A stretch of DNA of 20,377 nucleotides from positions 1 through 20,377 of IMG/VR virus record IMGVR_UViG_3300035034_001368, one strand, 5' to 3'. Positions 11,385 to 18,750 of this stretch are shown piece by piece (the first letter of the stretch is position 1; each line of letters opens with the position of its first letter). A program made the position numbers and the translations under genes. Source of the stretch: a virus. A model generated the notes under the pieces. That model saw only the letters and a list, made by a program, of their open reading frames with translations, ran no database searches and was not told the origin of the DNA.

Positions 11385-11819
11385 CTATTCGAATTCTATT
11401 TCAATATTTACATTTAAAACTTCATTAACGGGAGTCTTTGAGCTTAACAATACATATATAGGTATAAATTCACCAGCAGTAGGATTGTTTACTCTATAGC
11501 TGTTGAAATCTGGAATCACAGTAAAACTATCCGAAGTAGGTTCTACATCAGACATAATGGTTTTAATAGAATATAAGTCTTCTAAGTCTTCACCATGGAA
11601 TTTTACCTGAACATAGCTCAGTGTTTCTCCTGGAGCCACAACCATATAGTATTTCCTTACTACTTGTTGAAAAGGTTGAACGCTTAAGAAGTGATTTGGA
11701 ATTGAACTTATCTCCAACAGGTCTTCTGTTAGAGGGTCAAAATAGCAGACACCAACAGGCCCTGATACTGTGCCAGCTGTAATCGTTACTGTATTAACCG
11801 GATTTGCTATAGTTGCCAT
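11385..11819 (-). CDS. Beta-rich hypothetical structural protein directly after terL
   Basis: The 144-residue protein has a start that shares bases with the terminase stop (TAATG). It opens with an alternating Thr/Val pattern (NPVNTVTITAGTVSGPVGV), continues with short beta-prone segments (YYMVVAPGETLSYVQVKFHG) and ends EVLNVNIEIEFE. The whole protein resembles a single beta-sandwich domain without catalytic residues. Such proteins near terminase and portal genes are often head decoration, head-tail connector or neck proteins. No family is recognised, so the structural role is inferred from composition and place. Confidence 0.8.
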   Translation of the reverse strand: MATIANPVNTVTITAGTVSGPVGVCYFDPLTEDLLEISSIPNHFLSVQPFQQVVRKYYMVVAPGETLSYVQVKFHGEDLEDLYSIKTIMSDVEPTSDSFTVIPDFNSYRVNNPTAGEFIPIYVLLSSKTPVNEVLNVNIEIEFE

Positions 11820-13897
11820 TAAAAACTAGCTCTCCCCTTAGGACCATTGACTTTATTACTCTTAGGCCCCTGTTTAATATATCCATCTGGGCCAACATTC
11901 TGTAGCGTATTTCTATAAGCACGAAGCTCAGGTTCACCAAACCCTTTTATTCTGCTTCCACTACCGCCAAAACTAGCTCTATTATAACCATTAATACGGT
12001 TTTTGAACAGGGCTGATCCGCGTCTTTGTTGAGGAGAAGTGCTTAAATCTGCAAATAAATTGTTATTTGCTGGCTCAAATGGGTCACCAAGCTCTTGCTT
12101 GACTCCATCCCTAGTCTCTCTAGACACCAAATGTATTATGTCTTCAGCATACTGAATATTGAGAAATTCTGAATATTCCATAGAGAATCCCAGTACGGCT
12201 AGCATGAAAGCATCTAAATCATGGTCACCTACCTTGGGCTCTTCTGCTGCAAAGGACGGTTTTCCAGTAGGCGACCTGCCCTTAATAATATAGTTATGCA
12301 TCTGCGCTATTAGGTCCTTGTCGAAAACTTCATCTAATATGTAAGCCTCTCTTTCTAAGAACCTTACCGCATTTTCAACCATATAAACCTTACAATCTTT
12401 CTTCAACATTTCTCCGCCATTCTTATCCATGACTTCTATTTTTGAAGAGAAGTTAATGCCGATTACATTAGTTAGCTTAAGGTCTGGATGCTTAGGGTCT
12501 AGTTTTCCATATTGGTCCATAGCATACTGTTTAATAAACTGTATTTGTGAGGTACCAAATCCTTCGTCAACATATATGTGGTCAAACACGTACTCTCTAT
12601 TCAGCTTAATAATCTTATCTACTGCTTCTACTTGAGACCAGCCCTCTTTTGAGACTGTTTCTTTTCTTGCCACAAAGAACTTCTTGTTGACCTTATCAAA
12701 GGCTACAACCTGTATCCTTGTGCCGACAGCATCATCATTCCAGTCACAACCCATTATTACGATATACCTATCTCTATTTTCTAGAACGTCATCTCTTTGA
12801 GCCTGCGACATATCTTTGTTTATACATCTGTCGATATAGTATGTTTGGAATACACCCATTTCTGATGCACCAAACTCACCCATAACTTCTTGTACATAAC
12901 CAACATCTGTTAGCTGACTTTTAAGGTCTTTATCAAGTGCGTCCGAATAGTGGGGTAGTACAAAAGTAGGGAAGTGGAATTTTTTATACTCTTCAATTTG
13001 CTCCAACCTATGCAATGTCTTTTTGCCATCTGGAGTAGATGCTACCCACAGTTCTGTATCTGGCTTGTCAGCAAGAATAGCTAGGATAGAGTTAAAGTCA
13101 GCATCTGACATATAGTCTACTTCATCCAGAACAATTAGGTCGGCAGATTGACCCCTTACAGAAGTTGCACCAGATGCACCAGTCGTAAAACCTCTAATCC
13201 TAGAGCCGTTAGAAAAGGTCATCATGATATTTGGAGACTTAACATCTTTTGTTATTATCTCAGATGCTACGCCCCAAGAAGGGTCTAGCTTATGAACAAA
13301 TTCTCTTATCTGTATTATCAGTTCTTCTGCTTGAACTTCATAAGGAGTTACAATAAGCACCTTGTGATCTTTGTTTGTTAAGACTCTGTGTAGAATATTT
13401 AGTGCAAAAGAGTATGTTTTGCCTGTACGTCTACCGCAGCGATAAGCCTTACGCCTAGCAGTACAACGAACCATTTGCTCTTGATACCATCTTGTAGTAA
13501 ATATTCTATTCAAGGGGATTGTGTCGGTGTCGATATTTTCTTCTGCCCACGCATATGGATTTGCAATCTGCTCAAATTTATTTAGCTCATCTTCTGAAAA
13601 CATATGCCTTACATCTTTTGGAACTATAGTATCCACAGATGCGAGCCCTTCACATTTTATAACTATCTTACCATGTTCTTTAAGCTGTTTATTTTGGCAG
13701 GTACCACACATACCACTAACGGCTTCACCAGAAAACTGTTTAAGCTTTATAGCTGCTTCTTCTGTAAGTCTGCCGTTCTCATCTACGTCGAATATAGGAA
13801 CGTCAGGATACTTATGTTTTAAGTATTGTCTCCAGGGAATCTGGTTAAGTGGAGTTTTACCCCATTCAACCTCTTCTACTAAGTTAATTTTTTCCAT
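11819..13897 (-). CDS. terL: Terminase large subunit (packaging ATPase and nuclease)
   Basis: The 692-residue protein docks on the portal, translocates DNA by ATP hydrolysis and cuts it at the end of packaging. The ATPase half has Walker A at residues 154-161 (CGRRTGKT), Walker B at 254-259 (LIVLDE) and motif III at about 286-290 (ASTPD). The RNase H-like nuclease half shows its acidic residues in CDWND (Asp385), VDEGFG (Asp444/Glu445) and VGDHDLDAF (Asp558-562). An unusual extension of about 130 residues precedes the ATPase core. It contains C64-x2-C67 and C82 around a basic loop, possibly a metal site with a fourth ligand not obvious. The C-terminus ends in a basic Gly/Asn/Arg-rich tail of about 60 residues. 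The gene overlaps both neighbours as TAATG. Confidence 0.97.
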   Translation of the reverse strand: MEKINLVEEVEWGKTPLNQIPWRQYLKHKYPDVPIFDVDENGRLTEEAAIKLKQFSGEAVSGMCGTCQNKQLKEHGKIVIKCEGLASVDTIVPKDVRHMFSEDELNKFEQIANPYAWAEENIDTDTIPLNRIFTTRWYQEQMVRCTARRKAYRCGRRTGKTYSFALNILHRVLTNKDHKVLIVTPYEVQAEELIIQIREFVHKLDPSWGVASEIITKDVKSPNIMMTFSNGSRIRGFTTGASGATSVRGQSADLIVLDEVDYMSDADFNSILAILADKPDTELWVASTPDGKKTLHRLEQIEEYKKFHFPTFVLPHYSDALDKDLKSQLTDVGYVQEVMGEFGASEMGVFQTYYIDRCINKDMSQAQRDDVLENRDRYIVIMGCDWNDDAVGTRIQVVAFDKVNKKFFVARKETVSKEGWSQVEAVDKIIKLNREYVFDHIYVDEGFGTSQIQFIKQYAMDQYGKLDPKHPDLKLTNVIGINFSSKIEVMDKNGGEMLKKDCKVYMVENAVRFLEREAYILDEVFDKDLIAQMHNYIIKGRSPTGKPSFAAEEPKVGDHDLDAFMLAVLGFSMEYSEFLNIQYAEDIIHLVSRETRDGVKQELGDPFEPANNNLFADLSTSPQQRRGSALFKNRINGYNRASFGGSGSRIKGFGEPELRAYRNTLQNVGPDGYIKQGPKSNKVNGPKGRASF

Positions 13898-14832
13898 TAC
13901 ATAAGTCCTTTCATTATCATTGCTTCGTTGCCCATTATTTGCCCACGATCATTTAGTGCACTCTTACTTAAGGCATTCATTGTTCTCATTCTCTGAGTCC
14001 TTTCTCTTGCAAAATTTAACTGTGTACCACTGTGACTAGCATCAAATTGCATATCTGGCATCTTAACATCATGAGCTATTTCTCTGACCCAATTATTAGA
14101 TTTTGTCATAGCTTGCATTGTAGTTGCAATACCATGTGCAGCTAAAGCACCTGTTGCTGCACCAACAAGACCTGTGGTTACACCTAGTGCACCTTTCATT
14201 AGCATATTGTTCTTCATCTTGGCACCAGCAGCAAAGCCTATGTTAGAACCAACTCTCCATCCATATTCAATACCTATTTGTGGAGCAACAAAATCTGTAA
14301 GGAAATCAGTTGGAGTTCCTCCGGTGGCTAGAGTGTGTCCAAGAAAACCTATGGTAGATGCTGAAGTAAGGAAGTTCATACCTTTTGCGAATTTACTAGA
14401 CTTAACCCTTCCACGCTTGTCTCTTATTGCATTACCCTTATGGTCTCTTTTTATAACTGAATCCTTTTGGGCTCTTGATATAAAACCCATTGAATTAAGC
14501 AATGTCGTCCTATTAGCACCTGTGCCTCCAGTTGCAAATGCAAAGCCTCTTGCAAGATGGTCTGATGCTGTAGCCTTAGCCCATGCGTTTTTACTAATAT
14601 TATATCCACCACTAGCGATTGATGCTACACTACCTTGGTACGGATTATATACTTTCTCCCACCTTGAACTCCTGAACCTATCTGGATATTTTGCAAGGAA
14701 ATCCTGATGTCTGCCAAACTTACCTGTTGCAGCTTTTTGTGCTGCAGCTTCTTGTTTTCTGATTTTTTGCCACTTTGTTCGCTCTACTTTTTCAACTTTG
14801 CGAACATTGGGATCATCATATATTGATGCCAT
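13897..14832 (-). CDS. Gly/Ala-rich hydrophobic protein, possible internal virion or ejection protein
   Basis: The 311-residue protein belongs to no family I can name with certainty. The first 60 residues are very basic and helical (KVERTKWQKIRKQEAAAQKA). The middle has two Gly/Ala-rich hydrophobic stretches, at about residues 152-170 (NFLTSASTIGFLGHTLATGG) and 212-238 (GVTTGLVGAATGALAAHGI), with small-residue spacing like membrane-inserting helices. The C-terminus has a basic helix and the ending ALNDRGQIMGNEAMIMKGLM. Basic ends with glycine-zipper-type helices suit a protein carried inside the head that enters the host envelope during DNA delivery. The exonuclease-domain protein encoded just upstream has a similar hydrophobic helix near its C-terminus. 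The role is inferred. Confidence 0.82.
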   Translation of the reverse strand: MASIYDDPNVRKVEKVERTKWQKIRKQEAAAQKAATGKFGRHQDFLAKYPDRFRSSRWEKVYNPYQGSVASIASGGYNISKNAWAKATASDHLARGFAFATGGTGANRTTLLNSMGFISRAQKDSVIKRDHKGNAIRDKRGRVKSSKFAKGMNFLTSASTIGFLGHTLATGGTPTDFLTDFVAPQIGIEYGWRVGSNIGFAAGAKMKNNMLMKGALGVTTGLVGAATGALAAHGIATTMQAMTKSNNWVREIAHDVKMPDMQFDASHSGTQLNFARERTQRMRTMNALSKSALNDRGQIMGNEAMIMKGLM

Positions 14833-14834
14833 AC

Positions 14835-16433
14835 TTAGTACTCGTGGTGACCTTTACGTTCTTTCCAATTAGCAAATCCAGAACCATGGTAGGTTGCTGG
14901 TTTCTTAAATGACTTAAGCTGATAATCTAGACTATTCTTATAATCTATTTCATCTTGCCTAGCTTTATATTTTCTACCTTCGTCGCTACTTCCTGCCATA
15001 GCCATGCCTACTAGGCCAGCACCTGCAAGAATGCCACCTCCTATAATAGCATGTTTTCCAGTCATTTTCGAAACTCTGTCTAAGATATTAGACTTAAGCT
15101 TCATCATTCCACTATCTACATTTTCTTTCTGAGTCTTTCCTCTAGCCATTGTGTTTGCCAAAAGAGAATCTGCTTCCTCGAATGCCTTTTGTCTAAACTG
15201 ATTTATTGCGCCTTCTAAAGTATGAGTTTGGCCTCCTATCCTAATCTTGTCGTTAAGTATTTGGTCTTCTATTCCTGTGGGGTCAATACCTGGTATATTC
15301 ATATTTCTATACTGTCTTGCTACATCTTGTATTGCTGCTCTTCTTTCTGATGTAGTAAACTCTGGGTATTCTCCAGTTGGAGATATTTGTTTGGTGGGCG
15401 AATAGGGGACTTCTACTCTTCCTTCTGTGTGCCTGTCAAAAACTGTAAATGTTCCTGTTGAAAGATAGTGCTCTAGCTTAATCTTGGTAAAACCATCTCT
15501 GTCTATCTCTTGAAATCTATTCCTTACAGAGGAAAGGAACTGTCTTGAGCTCTCATAATATTGTCCTGCATTAATTCTAGCAAGAGCCTGCTTACCCTCT
15601 GGCCTTATTTGTCCATCAGCAAGCTGTCCCTGTATTTTAGTAAGTTGCTTAAATATTTGCTGCTGTAACATTGCGTCAGACTTAGCGGTATGCTTCTCTG
15701 TACCTAGTCCCAATGCATAAGATAAAAACTCTACATTTGTACCAATATTAATTCTTTGCTTAGATAAGAAGCCTTGTGATGCAGCTTCAGCATATGTTGC
15801 CTTTGTGATGTCCATAAGGTCTACAGTAATAGCACCAGCACCTCTTCTGGTATCGATGGCGGCAGCATTATATTGAGACATCATGTTCTGATATGCAGCT
15901 CTAACTGGCTCGAAGTCACGAGTTCTTCCACTATAAGCATTATAAGCTTTTGATGCTGATCGACGTGCTTCAGTTACCTTAGGTGGTGTATCAAATAATC
16001 TATTGCTAAAACTTCCTCCTTCTGCATATGAGCCATACCTCATAACGTCACGTAACTCTGCAGCCTTTTCTTCCGGAAGGCCACTAAGTACGCTATTAAA
16101 GAATCTGTTTTCGAAGTTTGCGTTTTGGATTAGAACCATTGTGCTCTTGTTTATATCAGACAATGCTTCTTCTATTGCGGAAATGGTTTCTTGTCCAGCA
16201 CCTTTGTACAACTGATTCCAAGTCATACCCTTATAGGTCTCTGCACCCCATTCATTTAATATGGACCTCTTGAGAGCATCCATGGTGGGGAATTTATTTT
16301 GGTCTCTTGTAAACCACTCTTTGGTAGACTTCTCTTTTGCAGAACCTATAGACCATATTGAATCCTTTGCGGGATCCAGACCAGTTGTCTCTATATCTAG
16401 AGAGAGCATTTCTGATAAAGGAAAATCTATCAT
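14835..16433 (-). CDS. DEDD-family 3'-5' exonuclease domain with long virion-like C-terminal region
   Basis: The protein has 532 residues. The N-terminal 260 residues carry the DnaQ/RNase T-type exonuclease motifs. Exo I is LSLDIETTGLDP (Asp13, Glu15). Exo II is LIQNANFENRFF, with Glu108 where Asp is usual. A connecting VDLMDITKA follows. Exo III is LGLGTEKHTAKSDAML (His248, Asp253). Such enzymes remove nucleotides from the 3' end of DNA or RNA. The region between Exo II and Exo III is stretched by some 80 residues. The other half is not nuclease: a helical region, a Gly-rich hydrophobic helix at 461-481 (HAIIGGGILAGAGLVGMAMA) and a basic His/Gly-rich tail. It lies between the TnsA-like nuclease and a hydrophobic protein, just ahead of terL. 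It may act in packaging or travel with the DNA. Confidence 0.85.
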   Translation of the reverse strand: MIDFPLSEMLSLDIETTGLDPAKDSIWSIGSAKEKSTKEWFTRDQNKFPTMDALKRSILNEWGAETYKGMTWNQLYKGAGQETISAIEEALSDINKSTMVLIQNANFENRFFNSVLSGLPEEKAAELRDVMRYGSYAEGGSFSNRLFDTPPKVTEARRSASKAYNAYSGRTRDFEPVRAAYQNMMSQYNAAAIDTRRGAGAITVDLMDITKATYAEAASQGFLSKQRINIGTNVEFLSYALGLGTEKHTAKSDAMLQQQIFKQLTKIQGQLADGQIRPEGKQALARINAGQYYESSRQFLSSVRNRFQEIDRDGFTKIKLEHYLSTGTFTVFDRHTEGRVEVPYSPTKQISPTGEYPEFTTSERRAAIQDVARQYRNMNIPGIDPTGIEDQILNDKIRIGGQTHTLEGAINQFRQKAFEEADSLLANTMARGKTQKENVDSGMMKLKSNILDRVSKMTGKHAIIGGGILAGAGLVGMAMAGSSDEGRKYKARQDEIDYKNSLDYQLKSFKKPATYHGSGFANWKERKGHHEY

Positions 16434-16984
16434 TACTTAATAAGTTTAACCAGTCTTTTGTAATCTGCATCAGATTCAAATATATCCTTTTCTGTTATGA
16501 ATTCGAATGTGGTATTTTTAAGCCTTTTACTAATAAATAGTTTGCATCCAGCAGCTTTGGCTTGAACTTGTCTATTATTAACTAAGCCCGCTGGCTTAAT
16601 TTCTATTACTTTCATTGTTCCATCAGCATATAGGACTAATAGGTCAGGCCAATAGTTCCTGCTCACATTATTGTATCTGTACGGAACACAAAAAGGTTCA
16701 ACAATATAGCTGACTACATTTTTATCTTTTTCAAGTAAATGAAAGTATCCAAACTCATATGCGGAACGAAATACGAATTCCTTCTTATTCTTAGAAGACC
16801 AGAATTTGCCTTGCTTGTATCTACTTTTATTTTCGGTAGTACTAAAGCCTTTTTTCTTTAGAGACTTTATACTAACTTGCTTTTTCTTTCTCGCAATCAG
16901 TCTTTTTTTCTTAGACTGAGCTAGGCCTTTGCTCCTTGCTTTATCTACGTGTTTCTTATTTACTCTTCTCTTCTTCGGTGCCAT
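16433..16984 (-). CDS. TnsA-like PD-(D/E)XK endonuclease with very basic N-terminus
   Basis: The 183-residue protein begins with some 45 residues that are almost all Lys/Arg, a probable DNA-binding tail. The rest shows the PD-(D/E)XK nuclease core: Glu77 in FRSAYEFGYFHLL, the strand-turn VEPFCVPYRYN, then YWPDLLVLYADG (Asp114) and KVIEIKP (Glu128, Lys130), with KAAGCKLF following. This matches TnsA-type N-terminal endonuclease domains, which also occur in T4 gp4-like head completion nucleases. In a phage packaging cluster it would process DNA ends after packaging or complete the head. The start overlaps the upstream gene by 29 bases with no clean Shine-Dalgarno except the purine-rich overlap, so translation is probably coupled. 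The nuclease fold is well supported; the exact role is inferred. Confidence 0.8.
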   Translation of the reverse strand: MAPKKRRVNKKHVDKARSKGLAQSKKKRLIARKKKQVSIKSLKKKGFSTTENKSRYKQGKFWSSKNKKEFVFRSAYEFGYFHLLEKDKNVVSYIVEPFCVPYRYNNVSRNYWPDLLVLYADGTMKVIEIKPAGLVNNRQVQAKAAGCKLFISKRLKNTTFEFITEKDIFESDADYKRLVKLIK

Positions 16985-17927
16985 TAACTAAATCAACGTC
17001 AGTCGCACTTAAATGACCAATATCGTGCTTAATCTCATCAAGTTTCCTTTTTAGGTCGCTCATGCTTTGAGCACTTGAATTATTGGAATTTACGTTCGTC
17101 TTCAGTTTCGCCTTGTCTTTTCTTGTAGCCATAAGAGCTTCTAGCACTTTCATTCTTTTCGCTTTAATTTTTTCCTTCAATTCCCATGCTCTAGAGATTT
17201 CTTGATTAATAACTTCGTTACCTGCTGGGTCAAAACTAATTACGTCTTGCATTAACTCTTGATGGCCTTCTGCGAGATGTTCTGTAACTCTCTTTTCGTA
17301 AATGTTATATTCTGCCAGCTCACTTACCATATATATTTCGGTAAGGTTTTCTAAGTCTACTTCAAACTCATCTATATACTGCTTAGTCCAGAAGTCTATT
17401 AGTTGCTTCTCTACCAAGCATGGTCTGCCTAAAGGTATTTTATCTTCTTTCACATAGGGGCATGTTTGTGCAAAAGGACATTGGTGCCCCTTGCAGTTCA
17501 TAGGAACAGATGCATTTATTCCAGTTGTCATTGTTCTCATAGAAGCTGAGATTCTCTTTGCCTCATCTTCGGTGAATTGAATATCTTGATATTGAGATTG
17601 ATCTACTTGAAGCATATCAAAATATTTTGATTTACTTATTTCACCATTGTCAGACATGACAATCCCGTTAAGTCCTACAAAAGTAGAAACCTCTTTGGTC
17701 TGTTCATCGTCTGGAGTTTGCGCTACAGGCTTTTCGATTTTTACTGCTCCTTTTTCACTCTCAGGAGTCTCTGAATTTTCCTGCTTCTCTGTTGCGCCTT
17801 CTGATCCTTGTTCAACTTTCTTCTTTTCAAACCCTGACTTCTCGCTCTCTTTTTGAATTTCAGATGCTTTTTGCAGCATAGCTGCTATCTCGTCAGGTTT
17901 ATTTACATAGTCCTTTTCATTAGCCAT
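16956..17927 (-). CDS. Cys-cluster protein, candidate small terminase or DNA-recognition factor
   Basis: The protein has 323 residues. The first 80 are a low-complexity, charged Glu/Lys/Ser region, probably disordered. Residues 145-170 carry C145-x4-C150-x5-C156-x13-C170 in the pattern CPFAQTCPYVK then IPLGRPC, most likely a zinc or Fe-S site. After it comes a long helical region (about 175-270, for example LIDFWTKQYIDEFEVDLENL) and a C-terminal coiled-coil-like segment (SDLKRKLDEIKHDIGHL). No other small terminase candidate is seen in the window, and this gene opens the nuclease-terminase group, so a DNA-recognition role in packaging is plausible. That is inference; the family is not one I can name. 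The start at 17927 has AAGG about 13 bases upstream, a weak ribosome-binding site. Confidence 0.82.
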   Translation of the reverse strand: MANEKDYVNKPDEIAAMLQKASEIQKESEKSGFEKKKVEQGSEGATEKQENSETPESEKGAVKIEKPVAQTPDDEQTKEVSTFVGLNGIVMSDNGEISKSKYFDMLQVDQSQYQDIQFTEDEAKRISASMRTMTTGINASVPMNCKGHQCPFAQTCPYVKEDKIPLGRPCLVEKQLIDFWTKQYIDEFEVDLENLTEIYMVSELAEYNIYEKRVTEHLAEGHQELMQDVISFDPAGNEVINQEISRAWELKEKIKAKRMKVLEALMATRKDKAKLKTNVNSNNSSAQSMSDLKRKLDEIKHDIGHLSATDVDLVNGTEEEKSK

Positions 17928-18432: not shown

Positions 18433-18750
18433 CTATTTAAATATTCTTTCTTTTAATTCAGCAATTTTATAGCATAGATTTCCGAATCTTACACCAATGT
18501 AATATAAGCCAGATGTAAATTCACCTAACATCCAATGTTTTCCAGCTTCTTTAAATCTTTTCTTGATACATTTTCTGCAAGCTATATCTCCTGCTTTGTT
18601 GGCACTATTAGCCCAACTTAGGTCATGGTCTTTACAGCAATGTCCTATGTATACACCGAATATAGTATCAAGCGTAACTCTACTTAGGAACTTAGACAAT
18701 CCGTCATTGCCTGATGGACCACAATAGTCTGTATCATCTTTTTTAGTCAT
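18433..18750 (-). CDS. Phospholipase A2-like small protein
   Basis: The 105-residue protein has the main landmarks of the phospholipase A2 fold. YCGPSG (Cys10-Gly15) resembles the Ca2+-binding loop Y-C-G-x-G. HCCKDHD (residues 37-43) holds the CCxxHD active-site motif with His42 as base and Asp43 as Ca2+ ligand. AGD55 is the probable second active-site Asp, placed as in parvovirus-type enzymes. CRKC (Cys58, Cys61) adds further possible disulphide or metal partners. The C-terminal 30 residues are amphipathic (GLYYIGVRFGNLCY). PLA2 enzymes cleave the sn-2 ester of phospholipids. In a phage it could help disrupt the membrane at entry or release. There is no signal peptide. The start follows AGGT nine bases upstream. 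The family match is convincing; activity is inferred. Confidence 0.75.
   Translation of the reverse strand: MTKKDDTDYCGPSGNDGLSKFLSRVTLDTIFGVYIGHCCKDHDLSWANSANKAGDIACRKCIKKRFKEAGKHWMLGEFTSGLYYIGVRFGNLCYKIAELKERIFK

What the first reader, a model, noticed from the sequence alone, without database searches (positions are those of the whole stretch)
14835..16433. DnaQ-type exonuclease fused to a membrane-helix virion-like region ahead of terL
All DEDD motifs are present in the N-terminal half, with Glu in place of Asp in Exo II and a stretched region before Exo III. The C-terminal half has a Gly-rich hydrophobic helix and a basic tail. This is not a replication enzyme layout. It suggests an exonuclease carried in the virion or bound to the packaging machine, perhaps degrading host DNA or trimming ends during delivery.
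Basis: partly seen in the sequence, partly recalled or inferred. Interest (0 to 1): 0.65.

Follow-up and report, generated by a model that had tools for sequence, protein, structure and literature searches.

The report
Terminase-linked exonuclease with conserved C-terminal tail
A large tailed phage encodes, just before its DNA-packaging motor, a DNA-trimming enzyme permanently joined to a short hydrophobic helix and a conserved tail; this undescribed arrangement recurs in many uncultured phages, so the enzyme probably works on packaged or delivered phage DNA rather than in DNA copying.

Summary
14835-16433 (-) encodes a 532-aa protein: an N-terminal DEDDh exonuclease (AF2/Foldseek: DnaQ/TREX1-like) and a C-terminal half with a Gly/Ala helix and conserved tail. 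The joint is not chance. Full-length homologues (23-33% identity) occur in Acinetobacter phage ME3 and over ten metagenomic phages, in the order gp4/TnsA-like head-completion nuclease, exonuclease, hydrophobic protein, TerL. All 15 members checked keep ExoI DxE, ExoII QNxxFE (Glu) and ExoIII HxAxxD. The tail is as constrained as the catalytic domain. More distant phages carry a 930-1300 aa DEDDh protein with canonical Asp and the same layout upstream of TerL: 47 of 52 assessable TerL loci have one of the two types (14 of 19 clusters). ME3's PolA already has an exonuclease segment, so proofreading is unlikely. No Pfam, PHROG or NCBIfam model covers the protein. Virion location is inferred, not shown; the 'membrane' helix passes the usual hydropathy cut-off in only 3 of 11 members. 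Best reading: a late, head/packaging-associated 3'-5' exonuclease, tethered by its C-terminus, processing genome ends beside the gp4-like nuclease. New variant of a known kind.

The parts
14835..16433 (-). 532-aa fusion protein: N-terminal DEDDh exonuclease, helical middle, Gly/Ala helix, conserved tail
16380..16403 (-). ExoI motif SLDIETTG (residues 11-18; catalytic D13, E15)
   Evidence: D13 and E15 invariant in the family alignment
16110..16127 (-). ExoII motif QNANFE (residues 103-108; Glu108 in place of the usual Asp)
   Evidence: QNxxFE in 15 of 15 members checked; Asp in the more distant group
15675..15698 (-). ExoIII motif EKHTAKSD (residues 246-253; H248, D253), DEDDh type
   Evidence: H248, A250, D253 invariant
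14994..15050 (-). Gly/Ala-rich hydrophobic segment AIIGGGILAGAGLVGMAMA (residues 462-480)
   Evidence: Kyte-Doolittle 1.88 over 19 residues; 3 of 11 members above 1.6
14838..14891 (-). conserved C-terminal motif YHGSGFANWKERKGHHEY (residues 515-532)
   Evidence: motif kept in the family; low dN/dS in helix plus tail
16433..16984 (-). TnsA/T4 gp4-like head-completion nuclease gene; its stop overlaps the exonuclease start (TAATG)
   Evidence: PF08722 at cut-off, phrog_218 head closure E=1e-13, ME3_10 40% identity, junction
13897..14832 (-). Gly/Ala-rich hydrophobic protein with conserved C-terminus LSKSxLNDRGxLLGNEA, directly upstream of terL
11819..13897 (-). terminase large subunit
   Evidence: PF03237 and phrog_2; ME3 TerL 38% identity

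Best explanation
The protein is a late, head/packaging-associated DEDDh exonuclease. The N-terminal domain (about residues 1-265) is a metal-dependent 3'-5' exonuclease of the DnaQ/TREX1 type (shown by motifs, predicted fold and invariance; activity, polarity and substrate inferred). The C-terminal Gly/Ala helix and the G/W/H tail tether it to the prohead, portal vertex or a partner there (inferred). It is made together with, and probably works beside, the gp4-like head-completion nuclease, so that the free DNA end left by TerL cutting is trimmed or resected before or as the head is closed (inferred). The hydrophobic neighbour at 13897-14832 is taken to be a companion in the same complex (inferred).
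For: Catalytic residues invariant at 23-33% identity and a DnaQ/TREX1-like predicted fold. Exonuclease and C-terminal half are one protein in every window-type member read end to end. Order gp4-like - exonuclease - hydrophobic protein - TerL in 12 loci counting the window, tight junctions TAATG, 2-nt gap, TAATG. Helix plus tail under purifying selection at least as strong as the catalytic domain in the two closest pairs (dN/dS 0.16 and 0.09 against 0.21 and 0.15). A second, more distant group has a DEDDh protein of the same layout in the same neighbourhood. T4 gp4 is reported as a nuclease required for morphogenesis/packaging (PMC7824862). ME3's PolA has its own exonuclease segment.
Against: No proteomic or biochemical data. 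The tether is a guess: its AF2 model is under pLDDT 50 and the helix is short. In the distant group the gp4-like gene was not found beside the exonuclease. Homology of the C-terminal tails of the two groups is not shown (hhalign 19%). KLEB27-3 and Moorella phage MTATph1 have a related TerL and lack the family, so the step is not universal.
Confidence: 0.5

Rival explanations
1. Ejected pilot protein: it is packed in the head and delivered with the DNA; Gly/Ala helices of this protein and its neighbour enter the inner membrane, and the exonuclease acts in the new host cell on host DNA, defence products or the incoming genome end.
For: Gly/Ala helices in this protein, in the neighbour and in a small extra protein of the distant group with a weak glycine-zipper match. 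Ejection proteins that bind genome ends exist (80alpha gp44, PMC7290940). In Moorella phage MTATph1 a DEDDh domain sits in a 1309-aa protein next to a 1949-aa Gly/Ala-helix protein in the tail module.
Against: Helix passes the hydropathy cut-off in 3 of 11 members only. Nothing ties the substrate to host DNA. The Moorella protein does not match this family's profiles.
Confidence: 0.28
2. The exonuclease fold is used mainly to hold or protect a DNA 3' end; the Glu at ExoII marks loss or reduction of catalysis.
For: Glu replaces Asp in all 15 window-type members. End-protecting virion proteins exist (T4 gp2, PMC2993671; 80alpha gp44, PMC7290940).
Against: All acidic positions and the ExoIII His are invariant, which pure binding would hardly require; Glu keeps the carboxylate; the distant group keeps Asp.
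Confidence: 0.1
3. Replication proofreading exonuclease that happens to lie in the late region.
For: Nearest named relatives are DnaQ and PolC exonuclease domains. At least one distant-group phage has a DnaE-type polymerase gene and no RNase_T hit elsewhere at E of 0.01 or better.
Against: Head/packaging operon in every locus; ME3's PolA matches phage polymerase-exonuclease models over its N-terminal part and lies about 60 kb away on the opposite strand; the C-terminal helix and tail are strongly constrained.
Confidence: 0.05
4. Membrane-bound scavenging nuclease in the infected cell (TREX1-like layout) that degrades host DNA late in infection.
For: TREX1 is a precedent for a DEDDh exonuclease with a C-terminal membrane helix (own knowledge; TREX1 is among the structural matches).
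Against: Packaging operon position; weak transmembrane prediction.
Confidence: 0.07

Closest known systems
Acinetobacter phage vB_AbaM_ME3 ME3_11 (AND75172.1, annotated hypothetical protein)
   Same: Full-length homologue including helix and tail; same ExoII Glu; same position between a gp4-like gene and a hydrophobic protein before TerL
   Different: 24-28% identity; function not annotated or studied as far as could be seen
DnaQ / PolC / TREX1 DEDDh exonucleases
   Same: DEDDh motifs and predicted fold
   Different: Glu at ExoII, about 145 residues between ExoII and ExoIII, C-terminal helix and tail, phage packaging context
TREX1 (layout only)
   Same: DEDDh domain followed by a C-terminal hydrophobic helix (own knowledge)
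   Different: No shown relation of the C-terminal parts; phage helix shorter and Gly/Ala-rich, followed by a conserved tail
T4 gp2 / gp4 head-completion pair
   Same: A gp4-class nuclease is the upstream neighbour; gp2 acts on packaged DNA ends (PMC2993671)
   Different: This protein is a DEDDh exonuclease, not gp2 or gp4
80alpha gp44 ejection protein
   Same: Precedent for a virion protein that binds genome ends (PMC7290940)
   Different: Described as a DNA-end-binding protein, encoded between portal and capsid genes; no relation shown

Membership tests
DEDDh (DnaQ-like) exonuclease superfamily | ExoI D-x-E | tested here: met
   D13, E15 invariant
DEDDh (DnaQ-like) exonuclease superfamily | ExoII Asp in NxxxF/Y-D context | tested here: not met
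   Glu108 in the window and in 15 of 15 close relatives; Asp in the distant group. A conservative change, so filed as a variant of the superfamily
DEDDh (DnaQ-like) exonuclease superfamily | ExoIII H-x4-D | tested here: met
   H248, D253 invariant
DEDDh (DnaQ-like) exonuclease superfamily | RNase H-like DnaQ fold | tested here: met
   AF2 model and Foldseek to 8h18, 2p1j, TREX1
DEDDh (DnaQ-like) exonuclease superfamily | 3'-5' exonuclease activity | not testable with these tools
   needs purified protein
Replicative proofreading subunit | Linked to the replicative polymerase gene and the only exonuclease available to it | tested here: not met
   Packaging operon; ME3 PolA has its own exonuclease segment and lies about 60 kb away
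Virion / ejection protein | Present in purified virions | not testable with these tools
   no proteomics found for ME3; 0305phi8-36 record and paper not held
Integral membrane protein | Span of about 19 residues with mean Kyte-Doolittle above 1.6 | tested here: inconclusive
   Met by the window copy (1.88), L007 (1.78) and L009 (1.67) only, 3 of 11; most distant-group members 0.8-1.3

The most novel reading that the evidence does not exclude
A large lineage of mostly uncultured phages carries a dedicated, C-terminally tethered DEDDh exonuclease as a core part of its packaging or genome-delivery machine, a role I know of no description for in this enzyme class; in the window's branch the active site carries Glu at ExoII.
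Probability: 0.45. Interest if true: 0.7.

Novelty: new variant of a known kind. Interest (0 to 1): 0.52.

Why it matters
It would add an exonuclease step to genome packaging or delivery in a widespread phage lineage. An isolate is available (Acinetobacter phage ME3, gene ME3_11, annotated 'hypothetical protein') in which this can be tested by virion proteomics and a catalytic-null mutant. It also gives a marker gene next to terL for annotating these phages, which no Pfam, PHROG or NCBIfam model now covers.

Tried and rejected
Single-sequence scans of viral contigs with the protein or with TerL found nothing; alignments were needed. L016 is an unrelated short DEDD exonuclease in another gene context. 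The genome-contig scan gave only one true member (L104, a 4.3 kb contig filed under a Pontiellaceae MAG); the rest align over the exonuclease part only. Plasmids gave only PolC-like hits. Profile-profile comparison did not prove homology of the C-terminal tails of the window group and the distant group (hhalign 19%; whole profiles also 19%): only layout and position agree. The C-terminal tail used alone found no convincing other phage protein. The 0305phi8-36 sequence and its mass-spectrometry paper could not be reached, and its comparative-genomics paper does not describe the genes beside its terminase. AF2 of the C-terminal 107 residues (pLDDT under 50) and of the neighbour 13897-14832 (mean 58) is too poor to assign a fold. 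The name 'SNase' of BFVD hit A0A6J5NQ80 was not followed.

Full report
Observation. The ORF at 14835-16433 (-) is as described: 532 aa from ATG. It holds ExoI SLD13IE15TTG, ExoII QNANFE108 and ExoIII EKH248TAKSD253. The window is a complete virus record of 20,377 bases, so no further genome is available. Family models see the protein weakly: RNase_T and RNase_H_2 at E=7e-4, both under cut-off, phrog_192 over 29 residues, PADLOC DEDDh at E=4e-10; no Pfam, PHROG or NCBIfam family covers the whole protein. AF2 with an 11-sequence alignment gives a confident exonuclease domain and a last 107 residues of low confidence (mean pLDDT 68). Foldseek returns the DnaQ domain 8h18, PolC exonuclease 2p1j, oligoribonuclease and TREX1, and in BFVD the ME3 homologue over most of the length (TM 0.61).

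Is the fusion real? Yes. ME3_11 of Acinetobacter phage ME3 is a full-length homologue, including helix and tail (24% identity, E=4e-31 for the pair), and sits between a gp4-like 'head completion protein' and a hydrophobic protein followed by TerL. Profile scans of IMG/VR found L005, L007, L008/L009 and L010 and L011-L015; TerL-anchored loci added L019, L023, L027 and a fragment in L025; L104 came from genome contigs. The complete order gp4-like - exonuclease - hydrophobic protein - TerL is seen in 12 loci counting the window, and with other sequence between in L027 (the gp4-like frame of L005 is broken near its start). Several members add 200-280 residues in front of the exonuclease (L005, L013, L015, L019, L027). 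In the window the junctions are TAATG (gp4-like/exonuclease), a 2-nt gap (exonuclease/13897-14832) and TAATG (13897-14832/terL).

Conservation. Across 11 aligned members D13, E15, Q103, N104, F107, E108, H248, A250 and D253 are invariant. ExoII is QNxxFE in 15 of 15 members checked. The ExoII-ExoIII spacing is 128-157 residues in all 11, so the stretched region is a family trait. The hydrophobic segment is kept in place but is short: 19-residue Kyte-Doolittle maxima there exceed 1.6 only in the window, L007 and L009. Nei-Gojobori dN/dS in the two closest pairs is 0.21/0.20/0.16 and 0.15/0.19/0.09 for exonuclease/middle/helix plus tail; many other pairs are near saturation at synonymous sites. 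The C-terminal part is thus constrained at least as strongly as the catalytic domain.

The wider set. A TerL profile brought in 80 loci. In a large group of phages a 930-1300 aa protein lies three genes upstream of TerL, with D-x-E[TS], N-x2/3-[FY]D and H-x4-D motifs, a Gly/Ala stretch about 75 residues from the end in most and the tail RRDPLVTAGVVGNLDRNKIGHTxMGxxKYNHLFGG. Between it and TerL lie a small protein with a weak glycine-zipper match and a relative of 13897-14832. Of 52 loci with at least 4.5 kb before TerL, 10 have a window-type and 37 a distant-type match; five have none: KLEB27-3, L021, L026, L030, L035. These counts are redundant: with TerL clustered at 80% by single linkage, 14 of 19 assessable clusters have a match, 9 of them window-type. 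On the TerL tree the window-type loci group together (100/100), with L021, which lacks the gene beside TerL, among them; KLEB27-3 and Moorella phage MTATph1, which lack the family anywhere in their genomes, fall among the other lineages (long branches, midpoint root). Homology between the two groups beyond the exonuclease domain is not shown (hhalign 19%).

What it does. A proofreading role is unlikely: ME3's PolA (ME3_61) matches phage polymerase-exonuclease models over its N-terminal part (phrog_17 over 6-554, phrog_403 over 2-184) and lies about 60 kb away on the other strand. The place in the module, beside the gp4/TnsA-like nuclease class whose T4 member is reported to be required for morphogenesis and packaging (PMC7824862), and the constrained C-terminus favour action on genome ends at the head. 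Shown: DEDDh residues and predicted fold, fixed fusion, fixed neighbourhood, constraint. Inferred: catalysis and polarity, prohead or virion location, tethering, substrate. A pilot-protein version stays open: Moorella phage MTATph1 carries a DEDDh domain (DLETTT, QNVVGFD, HEALTD) in a 1309-aa protein next to a 1949-aa protein with a Gly/Ala helix, in its tail module, though without detectable similarity to this family's profiles.

Verdict. Observation confirmed, interpretation partly supported: right about the exonuclease, the fusion and the non-replicative setting; virion location, membrane insertion and host-DNA degradation remain untested. New variant of a known kind.

Noticed in passing
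window 16956-17927 (-): Protein with a conserved Cys motif (PMNCKGHQCPFAQTCPY...PLGRPCLVE) found upstream of the exonuclease in nearly all loci, and also in KLEB27-3 and Moorella phage MTATph1 which lack the exonuclease. No family assigned; a possible core packaging factor or metal-binding protein.
   Followed up: partly
window 13897-14832 (-): Gly/Ala-rich hydrophobic protein directly upstream of terL; its C-terminal motif (LSKSxLNDRGxLLGNEA / IQNSRLNARSxLGSEA) is more widespread beside terL than the exonuclease itself. Function unknown, model too poor to assign a fold.
   Followed up: partly
L126:14513-18442 (Moorella phage MTATph1 CDS0027): 1309-aa hypothetical protein in the tail module with an embedded DEDDh exonuclease (DLETTT, QNVVGFD, HEALTD), next to a 1949-aa protein with a Gly/Ala helix.
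   Followed up: partly
window 18433-18750 (-): Small protein with the stretch YIGHCCKDHDLSW, reminiscent of the phospholipase A2 active-site motif (recalled, not tested; no Pfam match).
   Followed up: no
L001:9152-11434, L001:4078-5373, L015:4785-8629: ME3 TerL is interrupted by an intein-like insert at the Walker A region and ME3_9 by an intein; L015 has a 971-aa TerL frame preceded by a gene with zinc-finger and T5orf172 matches.
   Followed up: no
L036:2160-5688, L086:1838-4694, L072:2198-5588: In some distant-group contigs the large exonuclease protein is split over two frames; sequencing error, intron or true split not settled.
   Followed up: no
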